DNA from: Halonatronum saccharophilum DSM 13868
GTDB lineage: Bacteria; Bacillota; Halanaerobiia; Halobacteroidales; Halobacteroidaceae
Direction: 5' to 3'
Length of the DNA: 64,000 nt
NCBI RefSeq assembly: GCF_000517025.1
Contig: NZ_KI912091.1
Coordinates: 51,816 to 115,815, forward strand
The notes under the pieces: model-generated
The model's input: only the letters and a program-made list of their open reading frames with translations
Databases searched by the model: none
What the model was told of the DNA's origin: nothing
Program-made: the position numbers and the translations under genes
Shown: positions 5,963 to 39,139 of the stretch, one piece after another
Numbering within the stretch: the first letter of the stretch is position 1
How the letters are laid out: each line of letters opens with the position of its first letter

Positions 5963-5997
5963 TAATGATTTACTTAAAAATCAGGAGATGGTTTAGA

Positions 5998-20968: not shown

Positions 20969-21699
20969 AAGAATAAAAATCAAAGGCTTGGGCACTGATT
21001 AGATCTGATAAGAACCGATAAGTTTCTGATTAGAGCATTAAAAATAAGATTAAAAAAGTTCTAAAATCAGATTTAATCTTTGTTAATCTGTGCTAAGTCT
21101 TTGGGTTTGGGGTTTTAATATATAAAGATCAAAGGCATAGACGCTGATTAGATCTGACAAGAGCATAGAGAATAAGAAATGAAAGTTGTTGATTGTAAAA
21201 TAGGCATATGGCGGTTTGAAAATGATAGCTAGACTAAGTTCATCATTTTTGAAGTCAGATCATAAGAATATGAATCCAGAGAAAGCTATGATACTGCTTT
21301 TTCTGGATTTTTTTGTTTATAGTATAGTTATTTTACTGGATAAATTGTAGAAAAAAGGCAGATGAAATTGATTATTAGGGTAAAAATTGGTATAATGTTT
21401 ATTGGTTAGTTTTTACTTTATATAATTTGAGAAGTTAGCTTTTGTTTAATTGTGTAAGTAGGTTTTAGCCGTGTAAATCATTTGTTGGCTTTGGCAATTT
21501 ATAAAGATAGGTGTGATGAACATCTTGAAGATATTTATATGCTAAATGGGAAATAGTTAAAATTTAAGATATGTAAAAATTATATATAATAGTTGAATAG
21601 GTAAGTTTTTTATTAAAAATATAGTAATTTAAATATTTTTTGATAAGATTGTTTAATTTTAATTAAAATAAAGATATTCTATAGAAAGGGGAATTAATT
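20969..21699. repeat. Intergenic repeats at the left edge of the defence island
   Basis: Two imperfect copies of one repeat (20975-21022 and 21126-21165, core ATCAAAGGC...CTGATTAGATCTGA) lie here; a third is at 39177-39205 to the right of the island. The segment 21110-21145 (TTTGGGTTTGGGG, then AATATATAAAGATCAAAGGC) matches 39143-39180 closely. Base composition turns much more AT-rich after about 21,350. No gene is visible, although a hairpin GAATCCAGA...TCTGGATTTTTTTG (about 21272-21316) looks like a terminator. Confidence 0.6.
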
Positions 21700-22128
21700 A
21701 TGGATTCTTTAACTACAGATATATTAAGGCGAATTGTATGGGAATCAATTAAAAAAATAGGAAAAGTAGCTACTAATTACTTGAAAAATGGATTAAGAGA
21801 GTGGATATTAGATGAAGAAGATTATAAAAAGATTGCTAAAGAAATAAATAATGCTCCTGATAGTCTTAAGAAAACAGAAAAATTTTTAGATGATTTTCTT
21901 GATGATAATGAAACTATTGAATAAATAGTAAAAAAATCTAAAAATGAGAATACAATAAATAATAGTCAAACTAAGGATAGTCAAATCATACAGGGAGGAA
22001 ATAGTAATAAACAAGAAAAATATAATAATTCGTTAAATGGAGCTAATATTGCTAGAGATAATGAAGTTAAGGGAGATTTAGTTTTTGGTAATAAAAATAA
22101 ATTTAATGTTTCTACTAAGGGGCAATGA
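21700..22128 (+). pseudogene. Small effector/adaptor: helical domain plus C-terminal motif A, with an in-frame stop
   Basis: The first 74 residues form a helical domain homologous to the N-termini of the proteins at 26050 and 30456 (shared pattern ...VW...K..G......LK......DEEDY..I..EIN..P...K). TAA at 21922 interrupts the frame, but the same frame continues without another stop for 67 codons to TGA 22126 and encodes an Asn-rich linker ending in ARDNEVKGDLVFGNKN (motif A). That motif matches the N-terminus of the next protein. This is the effector-plus-NLR layout known for bacterial amyloid-signalling pairs. The stop is either a nonsense mutation, a sequencing error or a read-through site. 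It has a good ribosome site (AAAGGGG). Confidence 0.65.
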
Positions 22129-22131
22129 TTT

Positions 22132-23490
22132 ATGAGTAATACAAATATAACTAAGGGTAATAAAATAGATGGTGATGTAGTTTATGGTAATAAAATTATA
22201 AATGAATTACCAAAAGAAAATGAGGATTTACCGAGCAAACAAAATTATCATAAAGTCGATAGTTATTTAGAAAGAAAGTGGCATAAGATTAATCAAAAAG
22301 AATCTGATGAAAAGTTATTTTCAGAAGATAAATATTCGAAAAGATTTAATGATATTAATAAAGATTATAAAATTATACTTCTTGGTGATGGAGGTAGTGG
22401 TAAAACAACAGAATTAAAACAAATTGCAGCATGTTTTGCTAGAGAAGAGGCTTCTTTATATCCTTATTATGTAAATCTAGATACTTATGATGATGAAAAG
22501 ATTATTGATTTATTAGATGATAAATTTTGTGGTTGGCGAAATATACCTAGTGATAGATTGTTAATTATTTTAGATGGATTAGATGAAATAGAAAGTAAAG
22601 ATAAATTAAAAGTAATCCGTCGTATCTTATCTTTTACTAGATGTGAACAATACAAAAAAGCTAAGGTTATTATTTCGTGTCGTAGGAATTTTTATAATGG
22701 GATAAATGAGGAGTCTTCAGGAGAATTAAAAGATTTTTCATGTTATTTAGTGGAAAATTTAACTTCAAATCAAATACAAGAATATCTAAATGATAAACTA
22801 GTAAGAAAACAAAAATTTAATGAAGAGATTTATAATAATCAACTTAGTGATTTGTTAAGAACACCATTTTATTTAGTAGCTTTAGTTAATTTATTTGAAG
22901 AAAATGGACAATTACCTAAGAATAAAGCTGATATTTTTGAACAATTATTGATTCAAGATATTAAGTTTGATACAAAGCATTTTATAACGAAGAGAGATTT
23001 AAATGAAGAGAAGCAAGAAATAATTAGATTTCTTGAAGTTATTGCTATTGCTATGAATTTATTAGGGAGAAATTATATTACTAATAATGAGTTTAAAAAA
23101 TTAATTAGTGATAAAGCTACACGTGAATTACTTAAACATTCTAAAGTATGGACTAAAAAAGAAAACACAACTATAATATGGCAATTTAAACATAATAATT
23201 TTCAAGAGTTTCTATCTGCTCAAATTTTTTCAGAACAAAAATTTGAAACTATAAAAAAATGCATATCATTTGAAACAGATTATGAAAATATAAATCCATC
23301 TTGGATAAATACTTTATCTTTTTTAGTCAGTATTCTTGATAGAAATAATCAGTTATTAAAAGAAATATTGAAGTGGGTTGAAGATGTTTCTCCTGAACTT
23401 ATTGTTCAATTTGAAACAGATAAAGTTAATAGAAAGACTAGGATTAAGATTTTTAAGGATATTTTTAATAATTACAAAAGAAAAATATAG
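22132..23490 (+). CDS. NACHT-type STAND NTPase (NLR-like), N-terminal part
   Basis: 452 residues. The N-terminus TNITKGNKIDGDVVYGNKI (motif A) aligns with the C-terminus of the preceding small protein. The NACHT NTPase follows: Walker A LLGDGGSGKTTE (near residue 83), Walker B LLIILDGLDEIES, sensor VIISCRRNF and a helical part with FKHNNFQEFLSAQIF, the usual end of NACHT modules. The frame stops at 23490, but coding sequence of the same character continues in the -1 frame (see 23565). Without it the protein lacks its sensor. It probably detects an invader and nucleates the partner through motif A; that is inferred from the family. Confidence 0.8.
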   Translation: MSNTNITKGNKIDGDVVYGNKIINELPKENEDLPSKQNYHKVDSYLERKWHKINQKESDEKLFSEDKYSKRFNDINKDYKIILLGDGGSGKTTELKQIAACFAREEASLYPYYVNLDTYDDEKIIDLLDDKFCGWRNIPSDRLLIILDGLDEIESKDKLKVIRRILSFTRCEQYKKAKVIISCRRNFYNGINEESSGELKDFSCYLVENLTSNQIQEYLNDKLVRKQKFNEEIYNNQLSDLLRTPFYLVALVNLFEENGQLPKNKADIFEQLLIQDIKFDTKHFITKRDLNEEKQEIIRFLEVIAIAMNLLGRNYITNNEFKKLISDKATRELLKHSKVWTKKENTTIIWQFKHNNFQEFLSAQIFSEQKFETIKKCISFETDYENINPSWINTLSFLVSILDRNNQLLKEILKWVEDVSPELIVQFETDKVNRKTRIKIFKDIFNNYKRKI

Positions 23491-23564
23491 TAATAAATAG
23501 TAGCAAGATTGATTACTATAAATTAGCTCAATTTGGCCAATCTAAGGAGATAATTAAATTTTTA

Positions 23565-25973
23565 TTGGATGAAATAGAAAATACACAAACCGATGAAGTT
23601 CTAGTAACTAGTTTATTATTATTAAAAAATATGAAAATCTATTATAAGCAAAAAGAAAAAGCTAAAAGAATTTTAATGGATAAAATTATTGATAATGAAA
23701 TCCAAGAGGGTATTAAAAGTCATTTGATTAATGCATTAACGAGATTAAATATAAATTCTAAAGATATTGTAGAAAAAGTAGTAAATATTTTTAGAACTTC
23801 TGATAATCAGTCTATACGTTCTAGCTTATATACTTTTCTTTATAGTAGTAATTATTTAGATAAAAATATTAAGGTTTTTTTAGAAGGAATAGCTAATATT
23901 AAAGATAAGCGTAATGATAGTAATAGCTCAATTTTAATTAACGAGGGAATGAATTTAAGAAAGGGCATTGAAAAGGTAGAAACTGTTGAAGGGTTAATTA
24001 AAATACTTGATTATTTTATAAATAATCCACGAGATATTGTTGAGACATATATAGAAGATCATCTTAAAAGTATTGCCAAAAACTGTGTTAATGCTTATAG
24101 TAATAACTTATCAATTTTCAATAAAATTTTAAATCTATTTGTAACTTTAGTTATAAATTATAGTAATAATGAAGCAAAACAATTAATAGTTTTCTTTGAA
24201 GAGACAAGAACTAAGTTTAAAGCCTTTAAAGATGTTTTTGAACAAAGAACTGATGATATAAGTCATTTTAATGCTCTAGCTTTATTAGTAGAAAAAGATT
24301 TTTTTGATTATTTTGTAACTAAATATAAAGAAGGAGCTATTGCAAAAAATGAAGTTTGGTTTTTTCAAAATAGTTTAGATGTAGGTTTATATAAAGACTT
24401 TAATAATTTTATTAATGAGCAGACTGATGATAGTTTTAAAATTAAATCAGCACGAAACAATGAGAAAAAAAGAGAAGAGAGAATGAAAAAAGATATTAAG
24501 TTATTATTTGATAAGGATAAATTCATTGCTGAAATTAGAAAAATATTTGATATTAGTGGAAAAGATGTTCTTAATAGTGATTATATTTGGGGAATATATC
24601 ATGAGAATTATAAGAATAGTTATATTTTGAAGAATCTGGTTATAGAATCAAGCAAAATAGTAGGGGAAGAAGGTATATCATTAGAAAAAGCTATTAAAAA
24701 GATAAATAGTTTAAATTGGGATAGTTATTGTATTAGGCAAGTTTATGATTATTTAAGCAAGGGGACAAGTCTGCCTCTTACTGATGAGCAAGAAGATTAT
24801 ATAAAAAACTGGTGTTATTCTAATATTAATAAAATTAATTTTAAAACTGCATTAAATCAAAATGGAAAGTATAGTTTTAATGAGAATGCAATTTATCTTT
24901 GGTTTTTTTTAAGAAAATTTAATCTTCAGTATTCTAAAAATATCTTGCTTGATATGCTTTCATTTGATTGTTATGAAGGAAATGGTTTTTTGGGGATTGA
25001 ATATCTAGAAGAATACTTAGATAATGAAGATATAAGTGAAAGAGTATTAGATAATTTGAAGAATGGGATTGATGCTGATATTGTTTTAAGAAATCATATT
25101 GATTTTTGTGAAAGATATTCAATTAAAGAAGTTATACCCTATGCTATAAATTCAGTTATAGATGATAAAATAGATAATACAACAAGAAAATCTGCTTTGA
25201 AAACTATCTGTAAACTATCTGATGATAGTTATGATTTAGAAGAAATGATATTTGAAGTAAAAGATGAGTTTAAGTGGACTATGATTCATGAAGTGCTTAA
25301 TTTTATAAAAAAATCTGAAATAGAAGATAATTATTACTATGAAGAATTAAAAGATAGTCTTAAAAATCGTTTGAGAGATATTTTTAAAAGTGAAGATGAA
25401 GAAATTAAAATAAAGGCTGCACAATATTTAATAAAACTTGGTGATTTAGAAAGTTTGAAATATTATGTTGAATGGGTAGATGAATATGGCGAGATTCCCA
25501 AAGATCCAAGGCGTTATGATGATCCCTATTGTTTGTTGTATTTGGAAGATTCAAATGCAGTACCAGAATTAATGAAATTATTGGAGTTATCTTTTAAATA
25601 TAAATTTATAGATAATAGACCTAATATATTAAATAGTAGAATTGAAGAAACTTTAATTAAGATAGCATTGTTAGTAGAAGAAAATTACAATTTAGTAAAA
25701 GAAAGTGTTGGTGAATTTATTAGTAGTTATTCTTCGACTTATGAGAAAGTTACAAATTTACACTATTTTTTAGATAATTTAGAAGAAAAATATCTTTTGA
25801 ATAAAAGTGAAGAAGCATTAAATATTGAAAGTGTGATTGATAAAATGCAAAAGTGGGGTTTTATTAATTTAGTTTTTAATAATCAAGATAATGTTACTAA
25901 TATTAATGTTAAAGGAGATAATAATAGAATTGCTGGAAGAGATCACAAAGAAAATGAAACTAATATATATTAG
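23565..25973 (+). CDS. Helical-repeat sensor part of the NACHT protein, separated by a frameshift; motif B at the C-terminus
   Basis: 802 residues from a poor TTG start without ribosome site; the frame is open from 23472, overlapping the end of the NACHT frame. The junction is a run of five A (23481-23485): one extra A, or a -1 slip, would join the two into a protein of about 1,285 residues, the normal NLR layout. The content is HEAT-like helical repeats (IKAAQYLIKLGDLESLKYYVE). The last residues, TNINVKGDNNRIAGRD (from about 25,895), are motif B, identical in pattern to the motif of the following adaptor. So the intact protein would carry motif A at one end and motif B at the other. Confidence 0.7.
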   Translation: MDEIENTQTDEVLVTSLLLLKNMKIYYKQKEKAKRILMDKIIDNEIQEGIKSHLINALTRLNINSKDIVEKVVNIFRTSDNQSIRSSLYTFLYSSNYLDKNIKVFLEGIANIKDKRNDSNSSILINEGMNLRKGIEKVETVEGLIKILDYFINNPRDIVETYIEDHLKSIAKNCVNAYSNNLSIFNKILNLFVTLVINYSNNEAKQLIVFFEETRTKFKAFKDVFEQRTDDISHFNALALLVEKDFFDYFVTKYKEGAIAKNEVWFFQNSLDVGLYKDFNNFINEQTDDSFKIKSARNNEKKREERMKKDIKLLFDKDKFIAEIRKIFDISGKDVLNSDYIWGIYHENYKNSYILKNLVIESSKIVGEEGISLEKAIKKINSLNWDSYCIRQVYDYLSKGTSLPLTDEQEDYIKNWCYSNINKINFKTALNQNGKYSFNENAIYLWFFLRKFNLQYSKNILLDMLSFDCYEGNGFLGIEYLEEYLDNEDISERVLDNLKNGIDADIVLRNHIDFCERYSIKEVIPYAINSVIDDKIDNTTRKSALKTICKLSDDSYDLEEMIFEVKDEFKWTMIHEVLNFIKKSEIEDNYYYEELKDSLKNRLRDIFKSEDEEIKIKAAQYLIKLGDLESLKYYVEWVDEYGEIPKDPRRYDDPYCLLYLEDSNAVPELMKLLELSFKYKFIDNRPNILNSRIEETLIKIALLVEENYNLVKESVGEFISSYSSTYEKVTNLHYFLDNLEEKYLLNKSEEALNIESVIDKMQKWGFINLVFNNQDNVTNINVKGDNNRIAGRDHKENETNIY

Positions 25974-26049: not shown

Positions 26050-26460
26050 ATGATAGAAGGAATTACAGCATCATTGCTGGCAACAGCAGTTTGGGAAGCA
26101 GGAAAAAAAGGGGTAGGATTGACAAAGGGGTTTTTAAAAGAAAAATTTGGAGGAAAATTAAATGATGATGACTATATAGAAATATGTGAAGAAATAAATC
26201 AGATTCCAAGAAGCGAAAGGAAGAGTAAAAAAGAAATAGAGGAATTGATTAAAAACAATGAGACTATTTTGGATATTATTAATAATAGTCAAGATAACTC
26301 TACTAATATTAATGTTAAAGGAGATAACAATAAAATTGCTGGAAGAGATTATATAGAAAAGCAGACTAATATAGAAACTCAAAATAATATTACAAATAAT
26401 GGTGGGCAACAAACTAATAATTTCATACAAAATCAAAAGGATGACCCAAAAAAGTCTTAA
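26050..26460 (+). CDS. Small adaptor: helical domain, motif B, ends on a -1 slippery site
   Basis: 136 residues with an excellent ribosome site (GAAGGAGG). Residues 1-77 are the helical domain (VWEAGKKGVGLTKGFLKEKF, EEINQIPRS). Residues about 83-105 carry motif B (TNINVKGDNNKIAGRD), then an Asn/Gln-rich tail with QTNIETQNNITNNGGQQTNN. The last codons are CCA AAA AAG TCT TAA, a canonical -1 slippery sequence in the right phase. The -1 frame is open and leads into an NB-ARC start and the gene at 26541. The same domain order occurs fused in one frame in the protein at 30456. Likely role: amyloid-type signal adaptor, free or as N-terminus of a fusion. Confidence 0.75.
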   Translation: MIEGITASLLATAVWEAGKKGVGLTKGFLKEKFGGKLNDDDYIEICEEINQIPRSERKSKKEIEELIKNNETILDIINNSQDNSTNINVKGDNNKIAGRDYIEKQTNIETQNNITNNGGQQTNNFIQNQKDDPKKS

Positions 26461-26521
26461 CCTCCCTACCAGAGCGAAATATTTATTTCATTGGTAGAGG
26501 GGAGGAGTTTGAGCAGATAGA
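26352..26521 (+). repeat. 170-bp repeat, copy 1 (Asn/Gln tail, slippery site, NB-ARC start)
   Basis: Nearly identical to 35522-35691 with only a handful of differences. It covers the Asn/Gln-rich tail of the adaptor, the slippery site, the hairpin and the first codons of an NB-ARC domain in the -1 frame (NIYFIGRGEEF). It shows that two island modules share a recent duplication or gene-conversion tract. Confidence 0.85.
26437..26505 (+). promoter_or_regulatory. Candidate programmed -1 ribosomal frameshift signal, site 1
   Basis: Elements in order: AAGGA (26437-26441, Shine-Dalgarno-like), the heptamer A AAA AAG (26448-26454) in the zero-frame phase X XXY YYZ, a 6-nt spacer that contains the stop TAA, and a hairpin 26461-26505 with stem CCTCCC/GGGAGG extended by TACCA/TGGTA across a small bulge. 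The hairpin is GC-rich in a very AT-rich island. After a -1 slip the next codons read GTC TTA ACC and the frame stays open to 27302. This matches the layout of the E. coli dnaX signal. Activity is inferred. Confidence 0.6.
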
Positions 26522-26540
26522 AGAAAATACTCTCTTAGCA

Positions 26541-27302
26541 TTGAGTGGAATAAAGCGAGATTTTGTAGAGAATCAGACTAATATTAAGACTCAGATTAAT
26601 AATATAGAAAATAAACAAGTCAAAAAGTTTGTAGATGATTTAGAAACTATAATTGATGGTCGAATAGAGTATATAAAAGAAGACGGAAGATGTTTTATAG
26701 AAGATGATGAAGATATAATTGAGCTTATTGAAGAGAAGGTGCTTGATATAAAAGATGAAATATGTGATGACAGGAATGTTTTAGAATTAATAGAGCAGAA
26801 AATAAAACAAATGAAAGGGTATGAAAAAAATACGGAAGATGGAAAGAAAATGAGAATTAGAACATTACTGAATTTTTTAATAATTTTATCAGCTTGCAAT
26901 AAAGATTATAATATTGAAAAGGAAAAGAAATTATATAAAATTTTATCTACTTTAGATAAAAAAGAGATTAAATTTATTTTATATAATTTGAATAAGACAG
27001 AGCAAAGACATATTAAAAGTGTTGGTGCTAAAATCCTTAAACATTTAAGACGTCATAATTATCATCTTAAAAAAACAGAAAAAATCTTAATTTGTGATAC
27101 CATTTTTCCAGGATGTAGTAATGATTGCGAAAAACCTAAAGAAATATTTTCCAACATCATCAATGATTTCACATATATTAAAGAGAAACATCCTGATTTT
27201 TTTAATAAGGTACAAGGAAATTCAAATTTAATTTGTGGTAATTGCTTATCTCAATTACCTAAATATGAAAGAGCTAAAAAAATATTAAAAGGGATTGATT
27301 AA
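26541..27302 (+). CDS. Chimeric effector: NB-ARC stub and motif tail joined to an ABC-3C-like C-terminal domain
   Basis: 253 residues from a TTG without a ribosome site; the frame is open from 26454, directly at the slippery site, so a frameshift fusion with the preceding adaptor is the most natural start. Its first part in that longer frame is the beginning of an NB-ARC domain (RNIYFIGRGEEF) that breaks off at LSGI, then FVENQTNIKTQINN, a motif tail. The remaining ~200 residues are helical and end in CSNDCEKP ... CGNCLSQLPKYERAKKIL, resembling C-terminal domains of ABC-three-component effectors. The two genes behind it fit that system. Domain assignment is tentative. Confidence 0.55.
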   Translation: MSGIKRDFVENQTNIKTQINNIENKQVKKFVDDLETIIDGRIEYIKEDGRCFIEDDEDIIELIEEKVLDIKDEICDDRNVLELIEQKIKQMKGYEKNTEDGKKMRIRTLLNFLIILSACNKDYNIEKEKKLYKILSTLDKKEIKFILYNLNKTEQRHIKSVGAKILKHLRRHNYHLKKTEKILICDTIFPGCSNDCEKPKEIFSNIINDFTYIKEKHPDFFNKVQGNSNLICGNCLSQLPKYERAKKILKGID

Positions 27303-27303
27303 T

Positions 27304-27882
27304 ATGGGTAAAGAAATTAGTATAAAAGAGTTAGATAAAACTGAGTTTCCAGAAGAAACAAGGGAGTTACATAATGGTGTTTTTTATACTTCGTTTGCTA
27401 TTTTTGTACTTGGAATTGCGATGAATAAAGAAGAGTTAAAATATAAACGGGAAAAATTAGAAGATTTTGTTTTAGGGTTCATTCAAAATAATGAAGAGCT
27501 TATTGATAATTATTTTGATAATCAAGATGTTATTTGGGATGTGTATATTGTATTATTAGTTGATTTTGATCTTGATTTGGCTTCAAAAATAAAAATAGAA
27601 AGTAATCGGCTATATTGCAAAAAGGTTATTTTGAATTATGATGCTGATTTATCTAGAAAAGAAAATCTATCTAAATTAATCTTATTCCAAAATTTGAAAC
27701 CAGAAATGGTAAATACAATTATTAGTGAAGAAAGGTTTAGGAATAATTTGAGTAAAAAAACGAAAGATGAAAAGTTAATTTCGTTAATAAAAGAAAATAG
27801 TTTAGATGAGGCTAATAATTTTAAAATTAACGATATAATTGAAAATTGGTTAGTAGAGGTGGAAAATAAATGTATAAATTAA
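27304..27882 (+). CDS. ABC-three-component-like middle component
   Basis: 192 residues, soluble and mostly helical: YTSFAIFVLGIAMN near the start and IESNRLYCKKVIL in the middle, a pattern (Cys/Arg-Lys followed by a hydrophobic strand) seen in middle components of ABC-3C systems. The start ATG 27304 has AAAAGGG 10 nt upstream; the upstream TTG 27295 would overlap the previous gene. It overlaps the following ATPase gene by 13 nt, so the two are coupled. The identification rests mainly on size and on its place between a small Cys-containing effector and an SMC-like ATPase. Confidence 0.5.
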   Translation: MGKEISIKELDKTEFPEETRELHNGVFYTSFAIFVLGIAMNKEELKYKREKLEDFVLGFIQNNEELIDNYFDNQDVIWDVYIVLLVDFDLDLASKIKIESNRLYCKKVILNYDADLSRKENLSKLILFQNLKPEMVNTIISEERFRNNLSKKTKDEKLISLIKENSLDEANNFKINDIIENWLVEVENKCIN

Positions 27883-30434
27883 AAGAGGTTAATATTAAAA
27901 ATTTCAGAGGCTATAGAGAAGAAAAGATTAAGATACCTAAAGAAGCAGATATTATTTTGCTTACAGGTAATAATGGGTTAGGGAAGACGTCTTTCTTTGA
28001 TGCAATTGAATGGGGAATCACTGGGCAAATTAAACGATATAAACCTCCTAGCAATGAAAGAAATTCAGAATGTTTTCTTAAAAATAAACATGCTAATGAA
28101 CAAGGATATGTAAATATTATTTTTGAAGATGAAGAAGGAAGAGAAGTTTATATAAAAAGAACTACTAAAGAGGATAGAGGAAATGATTATAATCCAGGAA
28201 TACTAGAAATAAATCAGAATTTAAAAGGAGCAATTACAGATATATTGGTTAAGAGTAATAAAGAAAAAGATTTTGAGTTTAATAAATCTTTTAATTTCTC
28301 CCATCTTTTAAGTCAGGAATTAATTAGTGATTTTGTGAGAAATCATGAAACTGAACGTTATTCTGTTTTGAGTAATTTAATAGGGTTTAAAAATTATGAT
28401 GCTTATAGTAAAAAATTAAAGGAATTAAGAAAGGAATGTAATACACAATATAGAGGTTTAGAAAAAGAAAGTGGAGAAAAAGAAAAAGAAGTAATAAAAT
28501 TAAAGGAGAAAGTTAAAAATTTTACTGATAAAGATGGGAAGGATTTAAAAACAAAGTATTCTAAAATTAGTATGGAGATTTCTTTACATAATTCAATTGA
28601 TAATAGTATATTTTCACAAGATGTTATTGATATGGATAAAAATGAGGTTTTAGAAATTTTAAGAGAAGAAAAAAATAATTTAGATAAAAAGAATACTTCT
28701 TATAAAGAAAAGTTAAACAAGATAATTGATTTACAGGAAGGAAAAAAAGATTATAGCAAATGGTGTAATCAACAAAAGAAGTTAAGAAGAATAAAAGAGG
28801 CTTTAGATAAAAAATCTAAAATTAACTTTATAAAGAAAAACTACGAGAGTGATTTGAATGAACAGGAGTTAAAGGTAAAAATTAATAACATAAGTAAAAA
28901 AATAGTTGATTTAGAAGAAATAATTGTAATTATTGAAAAAAAAGATATGAATATAATGGAAAAATTAGACTTGTTAGTAGAGAAAGAAGTTGAAATAAAA
29001 AAACGATTTAATAATAAAATACTTAACTTTGAAGAATTAAATAAAGAAATTAATGATATAAATAAAGAATTAGATGATATTGAGAATAAGATTGAAGAAA
29101 TAAGTAATATAGAAAAGAAACTTTTAGTAGGAGCACACAACTATTTTCTAAAAAATAGTTCAGCTGAAAAGTGTCCAGTCTGTTTTAAAAAAATTGAAAT
29201 TGAAGTGGATGATTTAGTTAGTGATTTAAAAGAACGTCTTGAAAAAGAAGGTGGAAAGTTAATAAAAAATTATTTGGAACAAAAAGAAGATATTGAAGAT
29301 GATTTAGAGTATAATATAAATGAAAGAGATAAAATAAAAGAAAAAATTGAAGATCAATATTTAAAACTTAAGGATGAAGTTTTTAAAGATTATAAAATTA
29401 TACTTGATCTAAAAGAAAAACTAAATGAAAAAATGGATAATATAAAAAAGGTTAAGTTTTATCTACAGGAACTTAATTTGGAAGGAACTTCAGATAATAT
29501 ATTTGATAAATTAAAAGAGATAGAAGCTAAGAATAATAAAGTATTGTTAAATGATAACTATAAAAGATATACTATCAATAATAATAGTGAAAATCTAGGA
29601 CAGTTAACTAATCAATTAGAAAAACTTGATGATAAAATCAATACCTATCAAGTCAAATTACATAATTTAGGAATAGATAACATAAGTGAATTAAAAGACA
29701 CATTTAAAAAAACTGAGGAAAAGATAAGTAAAGTTGATTATAAGATAGAAAAAATTAATGAGATAATTTCTGAATTAGATAGTATTATTAAGGCTATAGA
29801 AGTTTCAAAAGATAACGACAAATTAAAGAAGCTAAAAAAAGAGATTAGTATTATCAAGAAAAAAATAGAGTTTTTAAAGAAAAAGGAAAAAGAATTAAAA
29901 AAGATTGAAAAAGAAGTTCCTACAGTAATTAATGAAATGACAGAAGAAATTTTAAGTCCATATAAAAAATTAGCTAATACTATCTATCAAAAGATTAACC
30001 CACAACCTATTTATACAAGGATGGATTGGGAGATAGATTCAACAGGACATAATAACGGGACTTTGCGATTAAAGATGTATTCTGATGATGGTAAGGAAGC
30101 TAACCCTTCATATATTTATAGTTCTGCTCAGGTTAATGTGATAGTTTTATCGTTATTTTTAAGTTTTGCTCTTCAACAAAACTGGAGTAAGTTAGATGCT
30201 ATTTTTATGGATGATCCTGTTCAAAATATGGATGATATTAATATCTTTTCTTGGATAGATGTTATAAGAAATATTATTTTTAAGAAAGCTAATTCTAAGC
30301 AGATATTTATCTCAACTCATGACAGGAAGTTATCTAATTTTATGAAAACGAAGTTTAGGATGTTGGATGTGTTTGTATTGGATTTTGTAGGTTATGATAA
30401 AACGGGGTCAAAGATAAAGAAAGGTATGTTGTAA
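27870..30434 (+). CDS. SMC/SbcC-like AAA ATPase with zinc-hook coiled coil
   Basis: 854 residues. N-terminal half-ATPase with NFRGYREEKI and Walker A GNNGLGKTSF (near 33-41); two long coiled-coil arms of Lys/Glu/Leu heptads (about 190-430 and 460-690) joined by the hook CPVC (near 437); C-terminal half with the degenerate signature YIYSSAQVNVI and Walker B LDAIFMDDPVQNMD, then STHD. This is the RecF/SbcC group used in DNA repair and in defence systems such as ABC-3C. It overlaps the middle-component gene by 13 nt. Its likely role is sensing or clamping DNA and controlling the effector at 26541. Confidence 0.85.
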   Translation: MYKLKEVNIKNFRGYREEKIKIPKEADIILLTGNNGLGKTSFFDAIEWGITGQIKRYKPPSNERNSECFLKNKHANEQGYVNIIFEDEEGREVYIKRTTKEDRGNDYNPGILEINQNLKGAITDILVKSNKEKDFEFNKSFNFSHLLSQELISDFVRNHETERYSVLSNLIGFKNYDAYSKKLKELRKECNTQYRGLEKESGEKEKEVIKLKEKVKNFTDKDGKDLKTKYSKISMEISLHNSIDNSIFSQDVIDMDKNEVLEILREEKNNLDKKNTSYKEKLNKIIDLQEGKKDYSKWCNQQKKLRRIKEALDKKSKINFIKKNYESDLNEQELKVKINNISKKIVDLEEIIVIIEKKDMNIMEKLDLLVEKEVEIKKRFNNKILNFEELNKEINDINKELDDIENKIEEISNIEKKLLVGAHNYFLKNSSAEKCPVCFKKIEIEVDDLVSDLKERLEKEGGKLIKNYLEQKEDIEDDLEYNINERDKIKEKIEDQYLKLKDEVFKDYKIILDLKEKLNEKMDNIKKVKFYLQELNLEGTSDNIFDKLKEIEAKNNKVLLNDNYKRYTINNNSENLGQLTNQLEKLDDKINTYQVKLHNLGIDNISELKDTFKKTEEKISKVDYKIEKINEIISELDSIIKAIEVSKDNDKLKKLKKEISIIKKKIEFLKKKEKELKKIEKEVPTVINEMTEEILSPYKKLANTIYQKINPQPIYTRMDWEIDSTGHNNGTLRLKMYSDDGKEANPSYIYSSAQVNVIVLSLFLSFALQQNWSKLDAIFMDDPVQNMDDINIFSWIDVIRNIIFKKANSKQIFISTHDRKLSNFMKTKFRMLDVFVLDFVGYDKTGSKIKKGML

Positions 30435-30455: not shown

Positions 30456-33400
30456 TTGAATGATAAAATTAGAGTTTCATTGTTGGCAGAAATTATTTGG
30501 AAGGAAGAGAAAAAAGGTTTAGGAATAACAAGAAAATTATTAAAAAATAAATTTGGGAAGCAGTTGCATGATGAGGATTATATAACAATTTCTGATGAGA
30601 TAAATGAAATACCTAGGAATAAAAAAAAGAGCAAAGAAGAAGTAGAAAAACTTATCAAAAATAACAATGCTATTATGAAGATTATTGATAATAAAAATAA
30701 TTCCACCAATATTAATGTTGTAGGAAATAATAATAGAATTGCTGGAAGAGATTATATAGAAAGTCAAATGAACATAAAAAGTCGAATGAACATAGGAACT
30801 TCTATAAAAAGAGCTACTGTCAAAATAAAAAATGAGAATGATATTAAAATTAGAGAAGAGAAAATCAATAAAGAGTTAACGCCTTTACCAAATAAAAACA
30901 TTAATTTTATTGGTAGAGAAAAGGAATTAAAAGAAATTGATGAGAAAATAAGTGAAAAAAATAGAATAATATCCTTAACTGGTACAGCAGGTATAGGAAA
31001 GACAGCAGTTGCAAATGAATATTTTTATCAAAAATTTGCTGAATACAGTTATATAGGATGGATTAATTGTGAGAATAACTTTAAAGAATCAATCATTAGA
31101 GATATTAATGAAGATAACTTAGGAGTTGTTTTTGAGAATGATGAAAATCTTAATTTAAAATTCAAAAAAATTATTAATAAGTTGGCTAGTTTAGAGCAAA
31201 AAACTTTGTTAGTGCTTGATGAGATAGATGAAGTTAATGAAGCATTACGAGCATTAATGAAATTAGATATTGATTTGATTTTAATTTCAAGGTCTAAATT
31301 AGAAGAATTTATGAATATAACGGAGATAAATATTGGAAGATTAAATAAAGATGAAAGTGTAGAATTATTTTGTGAATATTTTGGAGAGAGTTGTGATAAT
31401 GAATATGTTATGAAGTTAGTTGAATTAACTGAGGGGTATGCTTTAATGATAAAATTATTGGCTACGAATATAAAAACTTCAAGAAATAATTTAGATGATT
31501 TTTATCAGTCATTACTTGAGTTAGGATTTAATTTAGAAAAAGATGATTATAGTAAACGGGAAATATTTGAGTATTTGAAGAGGATATTATATATATTTGA
31601 TTTAAAAGATAAAGAAAAAGATGTTTTGCTTAATTTATCTATTTTGCCTTCAAAACCAATAAAAATTATTGATTTAAAAGGTTGGTTGGGATTAGAAACA
31701 ATAGATGTTATTAATGACCTAGTGGAAAAAGGTTGGTTGCAAGAGATTAACAACAAAGAATCTTATGTTATAATTCATAATGTAATTCAAGAAGTTATTC
31801 GAGAGGAGCAGGAACTTGAATTTTCTAAAATAGAAGATTTAGTAGATGCTATTACTGAGTTATTATCTCTTACTGCAGGCGAGAATTTTTTAAGCAAAAA
31901 AGAATATCTTGATTTGGGAGTATCGATATTAAATCATTGCCAACAAAAGAACATAAAGTTAGCAAATTTAAGTAATATTTTGGGAGTCATTTATCGAAAC
32001 TTAGGAGAAATAGGATTGGCTTTAAAGTATAATGAGAAAGCAATTGAGATAGCGGAAGAAATATTAGATGAGAAAGATCCTAATTTAGCAACTTGCTATA
32101 GTAATATAAGTTTGATTTATCAAGATTTAGGAGAATTAGGATTTGCTTTAGAGTATGCTAAACAGGCAAAGAAGATAAGAGAAGAAGTATTGGATGATGA
32201 TCATCCTGATTTAGCAACTAGTTATAATAATATAAGTATGATTTATAAAGATTTAGGAGAATTAAAATTAGCTTTAAAATATACTAAGAAAGCAAAAGAG
32301 ATAAGAAAAGAAGTATTAGATGATGATCATCCTGATTTAGCAACTTCCTATAATAATATAAGCGTAATTTATCAAGATTTAGGAGAATTAAAATTAGCTT
32401 TAAAATATGCTAAGAAGGCAAAAGAGGTAAAAGAAGAAGTATTGGATGATGGTCATCCTGATTTAGCAACTCCCTATAATAATATAAGTATGATTTATCA
32501 AGATTTAGGAAGATTAGATTTAGCTTTAGAATATTCTAAGGAAGCAATGAAAATATTAGAGGGAGTGTTAGATAAAAAACATCCTAATTTAGCGATTTCT
32601 TATAATAACATAAGTACAATCTATAGAGATTTAGGAAGATTAGATTTGGCTTTAGAATATGTTAGAAAAGCGATAGAGATAGAAGAAGTATTAGATGATA
32701 AATTAGATGATAAACATCCTAATTTAGCAGATTCTTACAATAATATAAGTACAATCTATAAAGATATGTGGGAGTTAGAAAAAGCATTAGAATATGCTAA
32801 AAAATCAGTAAAGATAAGAGAAGAAATACTAAATAAAAATCATCCTAAGTTAGTTAAATCTTATAATGATTTAGCTGATTCTTATAATGATTTAGGGAAT
32901 ATTTATAAAGATAGAGAAGAACTAAAATTAGCTTTAGAATATACGCAAAAAGCATTGAAAATAAAAGAAGAGGTATTGAGTGAGAATCACCCTGAATTAG
33001 CTAAATCTTATAGTGATGTAGGGAAAGTTTATAAAGATAGAGAAAAACCAGAATTAGCTTTAGAATATATGCAAAAAGCATTAACTATGAGGAAAGAAGT
33101 ATTAAATAAAAATCATCCTGATTTATTAGATTCGTATATGGAGACAGGAGAAATATATTATATAAATGCTAATATCAAAAAAGCTGTAAATCACTTAGAA
33201 ACAGGAGTACTGCTTATATTAAATAGCTCTAACAGTAATAAACAAAAAGTTAATTCATATTTAAAAAAGTATATTGAAATCTTAAATGAGATTAAAGATA
33301 AAGATAAAGAAGAGATAGATGAATTTGCAGAAGGTAATTATATTAATACGGTAAAAATTAAAGATTACTTATCAATAAAAGATGTTGAATTAGAAAATTT

Positions 33401-34496
33401 GAAAGATAATAAAGAGATATACTTTTTAGGTGAGAATGGCGACGGGAAGACAATTTTATTACAGGCTATTTTACTTTCTTTTATGTGTGGAGAAGAAAAA
33501 GTGGGATTAATAAATGAATACCTTAAAAATAATTTAGAACCTTTTACATTAGAAGGAAGTGATAGTAATAAATTTAGTTATCGATATTATTATCAAGAGG
33601 ATCATTTGAAAAGTAGGAAAGAAAATTTACTTAATAAATTATTTCAAGTTAGAACTGAATTATTTTTTAATAATATTTTTAGTTATGGTAGTAATCGAAG
33701 CAAAAAACTTAAGAAGTCTAGCAAAAGGGAAATCTTTGAATCTTTATTTACAGATAAATATATATTGAATGATCCAATAGATTGGTTACAAGAAGTTGAT
33801 TATCATGAGCAGTCTAATAAAGATTTTCCAGTATCGCTTGATGATGTAAAGAAGATGGTGAAAGAAATTTTAAATAATAATGTTGAAATTATTAAAGTTT
33901 CTCCTAAAGATGTAGTTTTTAAAGAACGAGGGAATGAAGTTAAGCTACATCAACTATCTAGTGGTTATAAAAACGTTATTATTTGGGTATTAGATTTATT
34001 ATCTAGAATTTTAAGTAATTCTAAAAAAGTTAAGTCATTAAAAGATTTAACAGGGGTCGTCTTGATTGATGAGATAGAAATACATTTACATCCTAAATGG
34101 GAATATAAGATAGTTAGAAATTTAAGGGAATGGTTTCCTAATATTCAATTTATTATTTCAACGCATAGTCCAGTAGTAATCATGGGGGCATCAGAAGATG
34201 CAGTGATTTATAGATTATTTAAAGAAGATGGAGAAACAAAATTAAGTCCTAAGATGAATAGAATGAAAAATGAGATGGCCAATACAATTCTAACTTCCCC
34301 GTTATTTGATTTAGGTACAGCTAGAGCTTTTGGTTCAAAATTGGAGGAACTTAATACGGCAGATGACTATATTTACTCTAAAATATATAAGCGAGTGAAA
34401 AATAGCCTTAATGATGAAAGGATATTTGATGAAGAAGAATTGAATGCGTTTATTGATGAGGAAATTAAAAAGTATGAAAAAAGGAGGGGGGAATAA
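30456..34496 (+). CDS. Helical domain-motif B-NB-ARC-TPR-PtuA-like ATPase fusion (NLR with built-in Septu ATPase)
   Basis: 1346 residues in one frame, start TTG with TAGGAGGG 6 nt upstream. Order: helical domain 1-78; motif B (TNINVVGNNNRIAGRD, ~83-100); NB-ARC NTPase with INFIGREKEL, Walker A LTGTAGIGKTA (~175-184) and LLVLDEIDE; about ten 42-residue kinesin-light-chain-type TPRs (~500-925, pattern YNNIS-IY-DLGEL-LALKY); then a complete second ATPase (~960-1346) with FLGENGDGKT, LSSGYKNVIIW, LIDEIEIHLHPKWEY and STHSPVVI, matching the AAA_21/OLD-like ATPases of PtuA. The HNH gene of PtuB type follows with a TAATG overlap. Sensor, signalling motif and effector ATPase are thus one polypeptide. 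Confidence 0.85.
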   Translation: MNDKIRVSLLAEIIWKEEKKGLGITRKLLKNKFGKQLHDEDYITISDEINEIPRNKKKSKEEVEKLIKNNNAIMKIIDNKNNSTNINVVGNNNRIAGRDYIESQMNIKSRMNIGTSIKRATVKIKNENDIKIREEKINKELTPLPNKNINFIGREKELKEIDEKISEKNRIISLTGTAGIGKTAVANEYFYQKFAEYSYIGWINCENNFKESIIRDINEDNLGVVFENDENLNLKFKKIINKLASLEQKTLLVLDEIDEVNEALRALMKLDIDLILISRSKLEEFMNITEINIGRLNKDESVELFCEYFGESCDNEYVMKLVELTEGYALMIKLLATNIKTSRNNLDDFYQSLLELGFNLEKDDYSKREIFEYLKRILYIFDLKDKEKDVLLNLSILPSKPIKIIDLKGWLGLETIDVINDLVEKGWLQEINNKESYVIIHNVIQEVIREEQELEFSKIEDLVDAITELLSLTAGENFLSKKEYLDLGVSILNHCQQKNIKLANLSNILGVIYRNLGEIGLALKYNEKAIEIAEEILDEKDPNLATCYSNISLIYQDLGELGFALEYAKQAKKIREEVLDDDHPDLATSYNNISMIYKDLGELKLALKYTKKAKEIRKEVLDDDHPDLATSYNNISVIYQDLGELKLALKYAKKAKEVKEEVLDDGHPDLATPYNNISMIYQDLGRLDLALEYSKEAMKILEGVLDKKHPNLAISYNNISTIYRDLGRLDLALEYVRKAIEIEEVLDDKLDDKHPNLADSYNNISTIYKDMWELEKALEYAKKSVKIREEILNKNHPKLVKSYNDLADSYNDLGNIYKDREELKLALEYTQKALKIKEEVLSENHPELAKSYSDVGKVYKDREKPELALEYMQKALTMRKEVLNKNHPDLLDSYMETGEIYYINANIKKAVNHLETGVLLILNSSNSNKQKVNSYLKKYIEILNEIKDKDKEEIDEFAEGNYINTVKIKDYLSIKDVELENLKDNKEIYFLGENGDGKTILLQAILLSFMCGEEKVGLINEYLKNNLEPFTLEGSDSNKFSYRYYYQEDHLKSRKENLLNKLFQVRTELFFNNIFSYGSNRSKKLKKSSKREIFESLFTDKYILNDPIDWLQEVDYHEQSNKDFPVSLDDVKKMVKEILNNNVEIIKVSPKDVVFKERGNEVKLHQLSSGYKNVIIWVLDLLSRILSNSKKVKSLKDLTGVVLIDEIEIHLHPKWEYKIVRNLREWFPNIQFIISTHSPVVIMGASEDAVIYRLFKEDGETKLSPKMNRMKNEMANTILTSPLFDLGTARAFGSKLEELNTADDYIYSKIYKRVKNSLNDERIFDEEELNAFIDEEIKKYEKRRGE

Positions 34497-35251
34497 TGAG
34501 ATTTATTAAAAATAAAGGGACTATCCCTGACTCCTTGAAGTCTGATAAGACTAATGAAATTAGAAAAGAAGTTATTAAGAAGCAATCATATAATAGCAAA
34601 CACAATAATTATTATAAAAAAGATGATATTAAAGAGAAGTTAAAAGGTGTTTATGAAAATAAGTGTGCATATTGTGAGAAATCATTATTGGATTGGTATC
34701 CTAATGTTGAACATTACAGACCAAAAAGTATATATTATTGGCTTATGTTTTCATGGGACAACTTGTTACCTGCTTGTCCACAATGTAATACTAATAAAGG
34801 AGATAAATTCAAATTAAATGGAACAAAAGTTGTTTATGAGGAAGAATTATTAGAAGAGATACATAATGATATTGAAAATTATAATGCTAAGGAAAAACCT
34901 TTGATGATTAATCCAGAAGTAGATAATGTTGAAAATAAGATAAAGTATGAGAAGACTGGAAAGATCAATTCTTATGATGACAGATGTAAGTATACAATTG
35001 ATATTTGTAAATTAAATAGAGATGATTTAGTGGAAAGAAGAAAAAAAGTTTATGATGATTTTGAAAGAAGAGTTGTCAAATTAAAAAAAGAGTTCAAAGT
35101 TGCCACTAAAGAAGAAATCAAAAAAGATATAGAGGCAAGAATTAAGCAAGAAACTTCAAAATTTATAGAGAATGCTTTTAATGAGGGAGTAGAGTTTTTA
35201 TTATTTCGAAGATATATAGCTAAAGAATTTTTAAGTGAGATACTTCGTTAA
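34496..35251 (+). CDS. PtuB-like HNH endonuclease
   Basis: 251 residues. The HNH core is complete: CAYCEK (57-62), NVEHYRPKS, SWDNLLPACPQCNTNKGDKF, with two CxxC zinc knuckles, then INPEVDNVENKIKY and YTIDICKLNRDDL, the pattern of the HNH nuclease of Septu/retron-associated PtuB. Its ATG overlaps the stop of the giant ATPase gene (TAATG) with GGAGGGGG upstream, so both proteins are made together. It likely cuts nucleic acid when the fused PtuA-like ATPase is activated. The C-terminal ~60 residues are helical and charged. Confidence 0.87.
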   Translation: MRFIKNKGTIPDSLKSDKTNEIRKEVIKKQSYNSKHNNYYKKDDIKEKLKGVYENKCAYCEKSLLDWYPNVEHYRPKSIYYWLMFSWDNLLPACPQCNTNKGDKFKLNGTKVVYEEELLEEIHNDIENYNAKEKPLMINPEVDNVENKIKYEKTGKINSYDDRCKYTIDICKLNRDDLVERRKKVYDDFERRVVKLKKEFKVATKEEIKKDIEARIKQETSKFIENAFNEGVEFLLFRRYIAKEFLSEILR

Positions 35252-35273
35252 TATAGAACAGGAGGAAATTGCA

Positions 35274-35630
35274 ATCGAAAAAATCATAGAATGGCTAAAC
35301 AATAATAAAGAATGGGTTTTTAGCGGAATTGGTGTTGGAATAATTACAGGTTTATGGACTATGTTTAAAAGAAATAAGAGAAGTGAAGATGATTCTATGA
35401 ATATCGATGAGAATTCAGGAATAGCTGTAGGAAAAACAGAAGGAGATTTTAATCAGACTAATAATTATGGTTCCGCAACAAATATTAATGGGGATAATAA
35501 CAAAGTTGTAAAAGGAAATAATATAGAAAATCAGACTAATGTTGAGAATCAAAATAATATTACAAATAATGGTGGGCAACAAACTAATAATTTCATACAA
35601 AATCAAAAGGATGACCCAAAAAAGTCTTAA
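35274..35630 (+). CDS. Membrane effector with motif tail, ends on a -1 slippery site (ATC start)
   Basis: 118 residues from ATC 35274, chosen because a perfect AGGAGGA lies 7 nt upstream and the product then begins (M)EKIIEWLNNNKEW VFSGIGV, a common beginning for one-helix membrane effectors. The only standard start is GTG 35235, which overlaps the HNH gene and has no ribosome site. One membrane helix (VFSGIGVGIITGLWTMF) is followed by basic residues, then Asn/Gly motifs (ATNINGDNNKVVKGNN, ENQTNVENQNNITNN) and the same Asn/Gln tail as the adaptor at 26050. The last codons are CCA AAA AAG TCT TAA. Probably a membrane-disrupting effector recruited by its motif. Confidence 0.6.
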   Translation: MEKIIEWLNNNKEWVFSGIGVGIITGLWTMFKRNKRSEDDSMNIDENSGIAVGKTEGDFNQTNNYGSATNINGDNNKVVKGNNIENQTNVENQNNITNNGGQQTNNFIQNQKDDPKKS

Positions 35631-35691
35631 CCTCCCCACCAGAACGAAATATTTATTTCATTGGTAGAGGGGAGGAATTTAAGCAGATAGA
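35522..35691 (+). repeat. 170-bp repeat, copy 2
   Basis: Partner of 26352-26521. It includes the Asn/Gln tail, slippery heptamer, hairpin and NB-ARC start. The hairpin differs at one stem position (CCTCCCC here, CCTCCCT in copy 1) without losing pairing. Confidence 0.85.
35607..35675 (+). promoter_or_regulatory. Candidate programmed -1 ribosomal frameshift signal, site 2
   Basis: Same layout as site 1: AAGGA 35607-35611, A AAA AAG 35618-35624 in phase, 6-nt spacer with the stop TAA, hairpin 35631-35675 with seven uninterrupted pairs CCTCCCC/GGGGAGG and then ACCA/TGGT across a 3-nt bulge. The -1 frame enters an NB-ARC domain (PPERNIYFIGRGEEF) with an intact Walker A. The downstream gene is broken further on, so any present activity is uncertain. 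Confidence 0.55.
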
Positions 35692-36992
35692 AGCTAAGAT
35701 AAAAGAAAAGATTCCCTTAGTATTGAGTGGAATTGGAGGGATAGGAAAGACAGATTTAGCCAAGAAATTTTAATCATCAAAAATCGAATCAATATGATTA
35801 TTTAGGCTGGATTAACTATGAAAGGAACTTTAAAGAATCAATTATTGGAGCTATTAATCCTCAAAGTTTAGGGATTAAGTTTAGAGTACAAGAAAAACTT
35901 GATCAAAAATTTAATCGAGTAATGGCTGAGTTATCTAATTTAAAGGGGAATATTTTATTTGTTGTGGATAATGTTGAAGAGAGTGAAGGAGTAGATCGAT
36001 ATTTAAGAGAATTTACAGGATTAAATATAGACTTGCTTCTAACTTCTAGAAGTAATTTAGAAGGATTTGAAAAATTAGAAATTGAAGAGTTAGCTAAAGA
36101 AAATTGTATAGAATTATTTAAAAAATATTCTCAACCTGACTGTAATCAGGAGTATGTAGAAAAGATAGTAGAACTAGCAGGGTATCATCCTCTAACAGTA
36201 GAATTATTGTCCAGAACTGCTCGTGTAGCTCGTAAAGATTTGGAGGAGTTTTATCAATTGTTGAAGGAAAAAGGTTTTAATCTTAGCGATGTGATTAAGA
36301 AAAGGATAAATACAAGTAGGCATAGAGACTATGATAAACGGGAATTATTTCAGCATTTAAGGAAGGTTTTTGATATATCTAATCTGGGAATAGAAGAAAA
36401 GGTTGTCTTGCTTAATTTATCGATTTTGCCTTCTACTCCTTTAAAAATAAGTAATTTAGAAGAATGGCTGAAGTTAGAGAATACAGATGTTATTGATGAT
36501 TTGATAGCGAAGGGTTGGCTAAAGGAAATATATAATAAAGATACTAGTGATTATTATGTTGTAATTCATAATGTAATTCAGGAGATTGTCCGTGAGGAAC
36601 AGGAGCTTGAATTTTCTAAAGCAGAAAATTTAGTGAAGGCTATTGAGGCGTTATTATATTCATCACCAAATGAAAATCCTTTAGAGAAAAAGGAGTATGT
36701 TAATTTTGGAGTGTCAATATTAGAGTATTGTCGGCAGGAGAATAAAGATTTAGCAAATTTGAGTAATAATTTAGGACAAATTTATAAAGCTATAGGAAAA
36801 TTAGATTTGGCTTTAGAGTATGCTGAGCAGGCAAAGAATATATATAGAGAGGTATTACAAGGTGAGAAACATCCTGACTTAGCAGATTCCTATAACCATA
36901 TAAGTATAATTTATCAGGATCTAGGAAAATTAGATTTGGCTTTAAAGTATGCTAAGCAGGCAAAGGATATATATAGAAGTATTGCAGGATGA
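35624..36992 (+). pseudogene. NB-ARC-TPR NLR, broken (NTPase and first repeats)
   Basis: Starting at the slippery site the -1 frame encodes NIYFIGRGEEF and Walker A LSGIGGIGKTDLAKKF, then stops at TAA 35771. The next frame takes up at once (NHQKSNQYDYLGWINYERNF) and continues through NILFVVDNVEE, LLLTSRSNL, YHPLTVELLS and a winged-helix part to the first kinesin-light-chain-type TPRs, ending at 36992. Its longest piece is 35922-36992, whose apparent ATG is internal. The sequence is homologous throughout to residues 140-560 of the protein at 30456. At least two frame breaks make it a probable pseudogene. Confidence 0.7.
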
Positions 36993-37938
36993 GAAACATC
37001 TTAATCTAGCCACATGTTATAGTAATATAGGACAAGTTTATCAAGCTAAGGGAGAGTTAGAGTTAGCTTTAGATTATGCTGAGCAGGCAAAGGAGATAAT
37101 AGAAGAAGTATTAGGTGAGAAAGATTCTAAATTAGCTACATCTTATGATAATTTAGGACAAATTCATAAAGATATGGGAGAATTAGATTTAGCTTTAAAG
37201 TATGCTAAGCAGGCAAAAGATATAAGAGAAGAAATATTACAGAATGAGAAGCATCCTGATTTAATTCATTCTTATAATAATTTAGGAACAATCTATAAAG
37301 ATATAGGAAAATTAGATTTGGCTTTAAAGTATATTAAGCAGGCAAAAGATATGAGAGAAGAAATATTAGATGAGAAGCATCCTGATTTAATCCAATCATA
37401 TAGTAATATAGGAGCAATTCATAAAGATATGGGAGAATTAGAATTAGCTTTAAAGTATGTTAAGCAAGCAAAAGAGATACACGAAGGAGTATTAAATCAC
37501 AAACATCCTAGTTTAGCAATTTTCTACAATAATTTAGGAACAATTTATTTAGATATGGGAAAATTGAATTTGGCTTTGAAGTATACTAAGCAAGCAAAGG
37601 AGATATGCGAAGAAGTATTAGGGGACAAACATCCTAATTTTTCCGTATACTGTAATAGTTTAGGTCAGATTTATCAAGCTAAGGGAGAATTAGAATTAGC
37701 TTTGAAGTATACTAAGCAAACAAAGGAGATACGCGAAGAAATATTGGATGACAAACATCCTAGTTTAGCAACTGCCTATAGGAATTTAGGGATAATTTAT
37801 TTTGAACAGAGGTCATATGAAGAAAGCATTAAATATTTCAAACAGGCAAAGGAAATTTTGGAATATAATTTTCCGAAAGGACATCCAGACTTAGATAGTG
37901 TTAATGAATTTTTAGGAGTAGTTAGAATATTTACATAA
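36949..37938 (+). pseudogene. TPR array of the broken NLR, third frame
   Basis: Continuation of the TPR array after another frame break near 36,978 (IYR in the first frame, EVLQDEKHLNLATCYSN in this one; two bases appear lost). It carries about seven 42-residue TPRs of pattern SYNNLGTIYKDIGKLDLALK and ends with FEQRSYEESIKYFKQAKEIL and FLGVVRIFT. No effector domain follows, unlike the paralog at 30456. Its start codon lies inside the previous frame and has no ribosome site, so independent translation is unlikely. The DNA of the repeats is closely similar to that of 30456. Confidence 0.65.
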
Positions 37939-39125: not shown

Positions 39126-39139
39126 AAAAAAATAAAAAA

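What the first reader, a model, noticed from the sequence alone, without database searches (positions are those of the whole stretch)
26437..26505. Textbook-like -1 frameshift signal between an amyloid-motif adaptor and the next effector frame
The adaptor's last codons are CCA AAA AAG TCT TAA. The heptamer A AAA AAG is in the exact phase used for -1 slippage, an AAGGA lies upstream, and a GC-rich hairpin starts 6 nt downstream in an otherwise AT-rich island. The -1 frame is open for over 840 nt, while the next gene has no ribosome site or good start of its own. A programmed frameshift that makes both a free adaptor and an adaptor-effector fusion would be a new way to set sensor/effector stoichiometry in bacterial NLR-type immunity.
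Basis: partly seen in the sequence, partly recalled or inferred. Interest (0 to 1): 0.9.

Follow-up and report, generated by a model that had tools for sequence, protein, structure and literature searches.

The report
Shift-prone junction in recombined defence operon
A real ribosome-slippage-type signal sits at the end of a small bacterial immune adaptor gene, but it lies in a gene fragment shared with a broken neighbouring gene, so it may be a mutation scar that leaks some fused protein rather than an evolved two-product switch.

Summary
In detail: A_AAA_AAG in phase (26448-26454), AGGA upstream, TAA at 26458, a stable hairpin (core 26461-26505), and an open -1 frame to 27302 lacking a good start. 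The interpretation needs revising. The -1 frame is not an NLR effector: it begins as a truncated NB-ARC start, continues as half an amyloid-like motif, then becomes the C-terminal component of an ABC-3C (Lamassu-type) operon whose middle component and SMC-like ATPase follow intact. The same heptamer-stop-hairpin block recurs at 35481-35693, before an NB-ARC/TPR gene with at least two further frame-breaking indels. Other defence genes here carry A-run indels or a nonsense codon. One more adenine would fuse adaptor and component in one 417-aa frame. The paralogue at 30456 has adaptor plus NB-ARC in one frame; a sister operon (G281) has separate genes without the heptamer. No orthologue was found, so conservation is untestable. 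The genome has only tRNA-Lys(UUU), so slippage should occur. I favour a recombination scar with incidental, leaky frameshifting (0.50) over a selected programmed frameshift (0.32). The apparent wiring of an ABC-3C complex to an amyloid adaptor is the more novel part.

The parts
26050..26460 (+). Adaptor: HetE-N domain plus C-terminal amyloid-like motif (free, 0-frame product, 136 aa)
   Evidence: Pfam HetE-N 4e-11, above cut-off; NCBIfam GapS6a-like 1.3e-12 but below its cut-off; SD -12.4 kcal/mol
26438..26441 (+). [quoted passage not shown]
   Evidence: sequence; spacing rule PMC4066793
26448..26454 (+). A_AAA_AAG heptamer in -1 phase
26458..26460 (+). 0-frame stop TAA
26456..26513 (+). Downstream stem-loop (core 26461-26505)
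   Evidence: -19.6 kcal/mol, z -2.85; core -18.6; pairing kept in the second copy
26454..26549 (+). -1 frame: truncated NB-ARC start VLTSLPERNIYFIGRGEEFEQIEENTLLALSGI
   Evidence: alignment with copy 2; blastp match to 30456 protein, 37.5%, E 1.5e-4
26551..26612 (+). Half of an amyloid-like motif (KRDFVENQTNIKTQINN) at the start of the ABC-3C component
   Evidence: repeat D7; match to adaptor motif 51.7%, E 0.007
26541..27302 (+). C-terminal component of the ABC-3C operon (ORF from TTG; open in the -1 frame from about 26421)
   Evidence: 30% identical to the G281 component over its length, E 3.5e-25
27295..27882 (+). ABC-3C middle component (ATG at 27304 possible)
   Evidence: Pfam MComp1 1.5e-8, above cut-off
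27870..30434 (+). SMC/Rad50-like ATPase (LmuB-like)
   Evidence: PADLOC LmuB 6e-88; 35% identical to G281 ATPase
35235..35630 (+). Copy 2 adaptor with hydrophobic N-terminal segment and amyloid-like motif (start GTG 35235 or ATT 35268)
35618..35624 (+). Copy 2 of the A_AAA_AAG heptamer
35626..35683 (+). Copy 2 of the stem-loop
   Evidence: -21.2 kcal/mol, z -4.94, 0 of 200 shuffles
35624..37938 (+). Broken NB-ARC/TPR gene: -1 frame to a T4 run at 35768-35771, back to the adaptor frame, then shifted again near 36980
30456..34496 (+). Intact paralogue: HetE-N, amyloid-like motif, NB-ARC, TPR and PtuA-like ATPase in one frame

Best explanation
The junction is a recombination scar. A block of about 180-210 bp, also present in front of the NB-ARC/TPR gene at 35624-37938, now joins a HetE-N/amyloid adaptor to the C-terminal component of an ABC-3C (Lamassu-type) operon. 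With seven A's the two would form one 417-aa LmuA-like protein. With six A's the frame is one base short, so most ribosomes stop at TAA and release the free adaptor. Because the run is A_AAA_AAG with a stem behind it, and the cell reads AAG with tRNA-Lys(UUU), a fraction of ribosomes should slip -1 and make the fusion, which would keep the intact middle component and ATPase supplied with their partner. Shown: anatomy, duplication, NB-ARC remnant, ABC-3C identity, single tRNA-Lys type, decay of neighbouring genes. Inferred: that the frame break is a mutation rather than a selected device, and that slippage occurs.
For: A second copy of heptamer, stop and hairpin (35481-35693, 90% identical) lies in front of a gene with two further indels. 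The -1 frame starts as NB-ARC. Decay nearby: in-frame TAA inside HetE-N at 21922; NACHT/HEAT apparently split by a -1 shift at an A5 run without a slippery heptamer; ABC-3C ATPase at another locus of this genome split by A-run indels. Control: 42 ABC_tran matches in the genome, one with an internal stop and two partial, so the assembly is not generally frame-broken. G281 sister operon: separate genes, component with its own ATG, no heptamer. No orthologue in 59 class or 398 phylum genomes.
Against: The downstream fold ranks second of 64 AAAAAAG sites and first in the copy and is rare among synonymous recodings with island codons (5/5000). All four differences between the copies keep the pairing, though with two sequences this is weak. 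The -1 frame stayed open through a 12-nt in-frame deletion, and component, middle component and ATPase ORFs are intact. Copy 2 needs one lesion fewer if its A6 was never a lesion.
Confidence: 0.5

Rival explanations
1. Selected programmed -1 frameshift: ribosomes slip at A_AAA_AAG with help from AGGA and the stem, giving a fixed ratio of free adaptor to adaptor-ABC-3C fusion. The signal may first have served the NB-ARC gene and been carried over with the block.
For: Heptamer, SD-like element, stem and spacing all fit; strongest two folds of 64 sites; tRNA-Lys(UUU) only; no good independent start for the component; intact ABC-3C ORFs; pairing kept between copies.
Against: No orthologue shows conservation; copy 2 is in a broken gene; frame breaks without slippery heptamers nearby; G281 does without it. 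Unclustered frame breaks in bacterial genomes are mostly attributed to errors, indels or gene overlaps (PMC3711429).
Confidence: 0.32
2. The component is made independently: termination-reinitiation or coupled initiation at TTG 26541, or at AUA 26517 behind the GGGGAGGAG sequence that the stem hides until the adaptor is translated.
For: Strong SD (-14.9 kcal/mol) 9 nt before AUA 26517 and within reach of the stem; the G281 component starts on its own ATG and overlaps its adaptor gene.
Against: AUA is a very poor initiator (general knowledge); TTG 26541 has a weak SD and lies 80 nt past the stop; the SD-like run is also present in copy 2, where it is NB-ARC coding sequence.
Confidence: 0.1
3. 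Assembly or sequencing error: the true sequence has A7 and one continuous gene.
For: A-run differences are typical errors; several defence genes here seem to lack one A.
Against: The same A6 is read in two separate copies; housekeeping genes with A runs are open, and ABC_tran matches are nearly all unbroken; copy 2 also has a T-run insertion and a 2-nt deletion.
Confidence: 0.08

Closest known systems
ABC-three-component (ABC-3C) / Lamassu defence systems
   Same: Gene order: C-terminal component, middle component (MComp1), SMC/Rad50-like ATPase (LmuB-like)
   Different: LmuA usually carries an enzymatic N-terminal effector domain (PMC10586767). Here and in G281 no enzyme domain was found; the component shares an amyloid-like motif with a small upstream adaptor (HetE-N here, one hydrophobic segment in G281)
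dnaX / IS3-type -1 programmed frameshift signals
   Same: A_AAA_AAG, SD-like element, stem 6 nt downstream, tRNA-Lys(UUU) only
   Different: No conservation between species could be shown; the site lies in a recombined fragment shared with a broken gene
Bacterial amyloid signalling sequences (BASS) linking NLRs and effectors
   Same: Small protein with a C-terminal amyloid-like motif beside receptors (NACHT, NB-ARC) carrying a similar motif
   Different: The partner here is an ABC-3C component rather than an NLR; motif not assigned to any BASS family
Corrective frameshifting or slippage at indels in A runs (PMC5009743)
   Same: A frame broken in an A run may be partly rescued by slippage
   Different: The run is A6, short for transcriptional slippage (A9 runs and longer are the documented cases); a ribosomal heptamer with a stem is present instead

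Membership tests
Programmed -1 ribosomal frameshift | Slippery heptamer in -1 phase before the 0-frame stop | tested here: met
Programmed -1 ribosomal frameshift | Stimulators at suitable spacing | tested here: met
   stem at 6 nt; AGGA within the 6-17 nt range of PMC4066793
Programmed -1 ribosomal frameshift | AAG decoded by tRNA-Lys(UUU) | tested here: met
   74 tRNA genes; only Lys-TTT found
Programmed -1 ribosomal frameshift | Site conserved in independent orthologues | tested here: inconclusive
   no orthologue found; only a near-identical paralogous copy
Programmed -1 ribosomal frameshift | Both products made in a functional ratio | not testable with these tools
   needs reporter assays or mass spectrometry
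ABC-3C / Lamassu | SMC/Rad50-like LmuB ATPase | tested here: met
   PADLOC LmuB 6e-88
ABC-3C / Lamassu | Middle component | tested here: met
   Pfam MComp1 1.5e-8, above cut-off
ABC-3C / Lamassu | LmuA with an enzymatic effector domain fused in frame to a C-terminal domain | tested here: not met
   no enzyme domain found; the component matches only G281, not the LmuA proteins of L016/L018
BASS amyloid signalling | Shared motif on neighbouring proteins | tested here: met
   adaptor, HEAT C-terminus, 30456, and the G281 adaptor/component pair
BASS amyloid signalling | Match to a defined BASS family or fibril formation | not tested
   no BASS profiles in the libraries; fibrils need experiment

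The most novel reading that the evidence does not exclude
A selected programmed -1 frameshift makes, from one message, both a free HetE-N/amyloid adaptor and an adaptor-ABC-3C fusion, so that the SMC-type sensor complex carries a built-in amyloid seed at a fixed ratio to the soluble adaptor pool.
Probability: 0.32. Interest if true: 0.8.

Novelty: new variant of a known kind. Interest (0 to 1): 0.45.

Why it matters
If the frameshift is selected, it would be a new way to set the ratio of soluble adaptor to sensor-bound adaptor in bacterial immunity. Even if it is incidental, two operons (here and G281) suggest that an SMC-type ABC-3C complex can be wired to a separate amyloid-motif adaptor instead of a fused enzyme. 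The two copies of the block also show how NLR and ABC-3C genes exchange parts within one island.

Tried and rejected
Orthologue searches in the family (8 genomes), class (59) and phylum sample (398), plasmids, phages and viral contigs gave no orthologous junction. Structure prediction of the ABC-3C component from two sequences failed (mean pLDDT 39.7), so no fold search was made. No solved structure is a convincing relative (best E 0.22). The LmuA proteins of L016 and L018 could not be aligned with this component (hhalign probability 3% or less). Transcriptional slippage was considered unlikely because the run is only A6 (A9 and longer are the documented cases, PMC5009743). The hairpin as a terminator was rejected: no T run follows. 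The hairpin as a mere by-product of the LPxRNxxFIGR coding motif is only partly enough. The flanking 70-nt repeat was tested as an attachment site and rejected: it has 22 dispersed copies. No Rfam family matches here.

Full report
1. The observation. The adaptor ORF 26050-26460 ends CCA AAA AAG TCT TAA, with A_AAA_AAG at 26448-26454 in -1 phase, AGGA at 26438-26441 and a stem-loop whose core spans 26461-26505. The -1 frame is open from about 26421 to 27302. No ATG or GTG lies near its beginning: the first canonical start is TTG 26541 with a weak SD match, and the one strong SD-like run faces AUA 26517.

2. How unusual it is. The heptamer as DNA is common here (64 against 52.7 expected), and it is in phase 8 times in the window's ORFs. 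A -1 frame break inside an A run ending in G tends to create this heptamer, so the heptamer and the frame break are not independent evidence. The stem is the unusual part: among all 64 AAAAAAG sites in the window the two strongest 60-nt downstream folds are this site (-19.6 kcal/mol) and one other, at 35618 (-21.2). Synonymous recoding of the -1 frame peptide matches the observed stability in 5/5000 cases with island codons, 67/5000 with housekeeping codons and 983/5000 when its own codons are permuted. The stem is therefore rarer than the coding sequence requires, but largely accounted for by its local G+C content.

3. A second copy. The other site belongs to a duplicate of the same block: 26311-26523 and 35481-35693 are 90% identical, with about 95 bp around the heptamer identical. 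Copy 2 sits at the end of a different adaptor, with a hydrophobic N-terminal segment. Its -1 frame is an NB-ARC start with the P-loop (VLTSPPERNIYFIGRGEEFKQIEAKIKEKIPLVLSGIGGIGKTDLAKKF). That frame is broken again at a T4 run (35768-35771), which returns it to the adaptor frame, and once more near 36980, where 2 nt are missing. Copy 2 is thus a broken NB-ARC/TPR gene. The four differences between the two stems all keep the pairing; two of them change the amino acid in the -1 frame.

4. What the -1 frame is. In copy 1 it begins with the same NB-ARC start, cut before the P-loop is complete (VLTSLPERNIYFIGRGEEFEQIEENTLLALSGI), then half an amyloid-like motif (KRDFVENQTNIKTQINN), then a domain found elsewhere only in G281, a genome of another family in the same class. 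Middle component (MComp1) and LmuB-like ATPase follow, both intact. The operon is of the ABC-3C/Lamassu kind, in which LmuA normally joins an N-terminal effector to a C-terminal domain (PMC10586767). A seventh A in the run would give exactly such a single protein of 417 aa: HetE-N, amyloid-like motif, linker, C-terminal component.

5. Comparisons. The G281 operon has a 73-aa adaptor with a hydrophobic segment and an amyloid-like motif, then a 255-aa component with its own ATG overlapping the adaptor's end and its own amyloid-like motif, and no slippery heptamer. The paralogue at 30456 has adaptor and NB-ARC in one frame. No orthologue of the junction was found in the family, class or phylum sample, or in plasmids, phages or viral contigs. 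Conservation, the usual proof of a programmed frameshift, cannot be tested.

6. The neighbourhood. The first HetE-N adaptor (21700) has an in-frame TAA inside the domain. NACHT (22132-23490) and HEAT (to 25973) appear to be one gene split by a -1 shift at an A5 run that is not a slippery heptamer and has no strong stem; that they were one gene is inferred from frame and order, and the match to the long NACHT protein of L018 is weak in the HEAT part. Another ABC-3C ATPase of this genome is split at A runs. In contrast 42 ABC_tran matches across the genome show one internal stop and two partial matches. Defence genes here are decaying, and the assembly is not generally broken.

7. Would it slip? 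A_AAA_AAG is among the most shift-prone heptamers in E. coli, and species with only tRNA-Lys(UUU) should behave likewise (PMC4066793). All 74 tRNA genes found in this genome were examined; only Lys-TTT occurs. Some -1 frameshifting is therefore expected whatever the evolutionary history. This rests on E. coli rules and was not measured.

8. Judgement. The block moved between an NB-ARC gene and the ABC-3C operon, and its A run is one base short of a single frame in both places. The simplest account is a recombination scar with an indel, read through at some level because the sequence happens to be shift-prone (0.50). A selected programmed signal remains a serious rival (0.32): the stem is strong, it is kept in both copies, the downstream genes are intact and there is no other good start. 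Independent initiation (0.10) and assembly error (0.08) are less likely. These weights are my judgement, not computed probabilities.

9. Novelty. The frameshift claim is unproven. The better supported new element is an ABC-3C operon whose C-terminal component has no enzyme domain that I could detect but shares an amyloid-like motif with a small upstream adaptor, seen in two operons. I know of no description of this arrangement, and the few papers searched did not mention it; that search covers open-access papers only.

Noticed in passing
21700-22128: First HetE-N adaptor is interrupted by an in-frame TAA (21922) inside the HetE-N domain; the frame continues to a motif (GDLVFGNKN) resembling the N-terminus of the following NACHT protein (GDVVYGNKI).
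   Followed up: partly
22132-25973: NACHT and HEAT ORFs look like one NLR gene split by a -1 shift at GAAAAAT (about 23480-23490); the HEAT end carries the same amyloid-like motif as the adaptor at 26050.
   Followed up: partly
30456-35251: One ORF joins HetE-N, amyloid-like motif, NB-ARC, TPR and a PtuA-like ATPase, followed by an HNH-type (PtuB-like by eye) gene: an apparent fusion of an NLR with a Septu/retron-type module.
   Followed up: no
L027 (G000:C8:610500-620000), 2178-6830: Second ABC-3C operon in the same genome (515-aa first component, 242-aa middle component) with its ATPase split into three ORFs by indels in A-rich sequence.
   Followed up: partly
21095-21164 and 39138-39207: 70-nt repeat (90% identical) at both edges of the AT-rich island; 22 dispersed copies in the genome, so probably an intergenic repeat family rather than attachment sites.
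   Followed up: yes
35235-35270: Copy 2 adaptor has a strong SD (AGGAGG) in front of ATT 35268 rather than a usual start; GTG 35235 is the only canonical in-frame alternative upstream.
   Followed up: no
L029 (G281:C32), 3791-4360: A middle-component gene (MComp1) with no recognisable ABC-3C component or ATPase ORF beside it.
   Followed up: no
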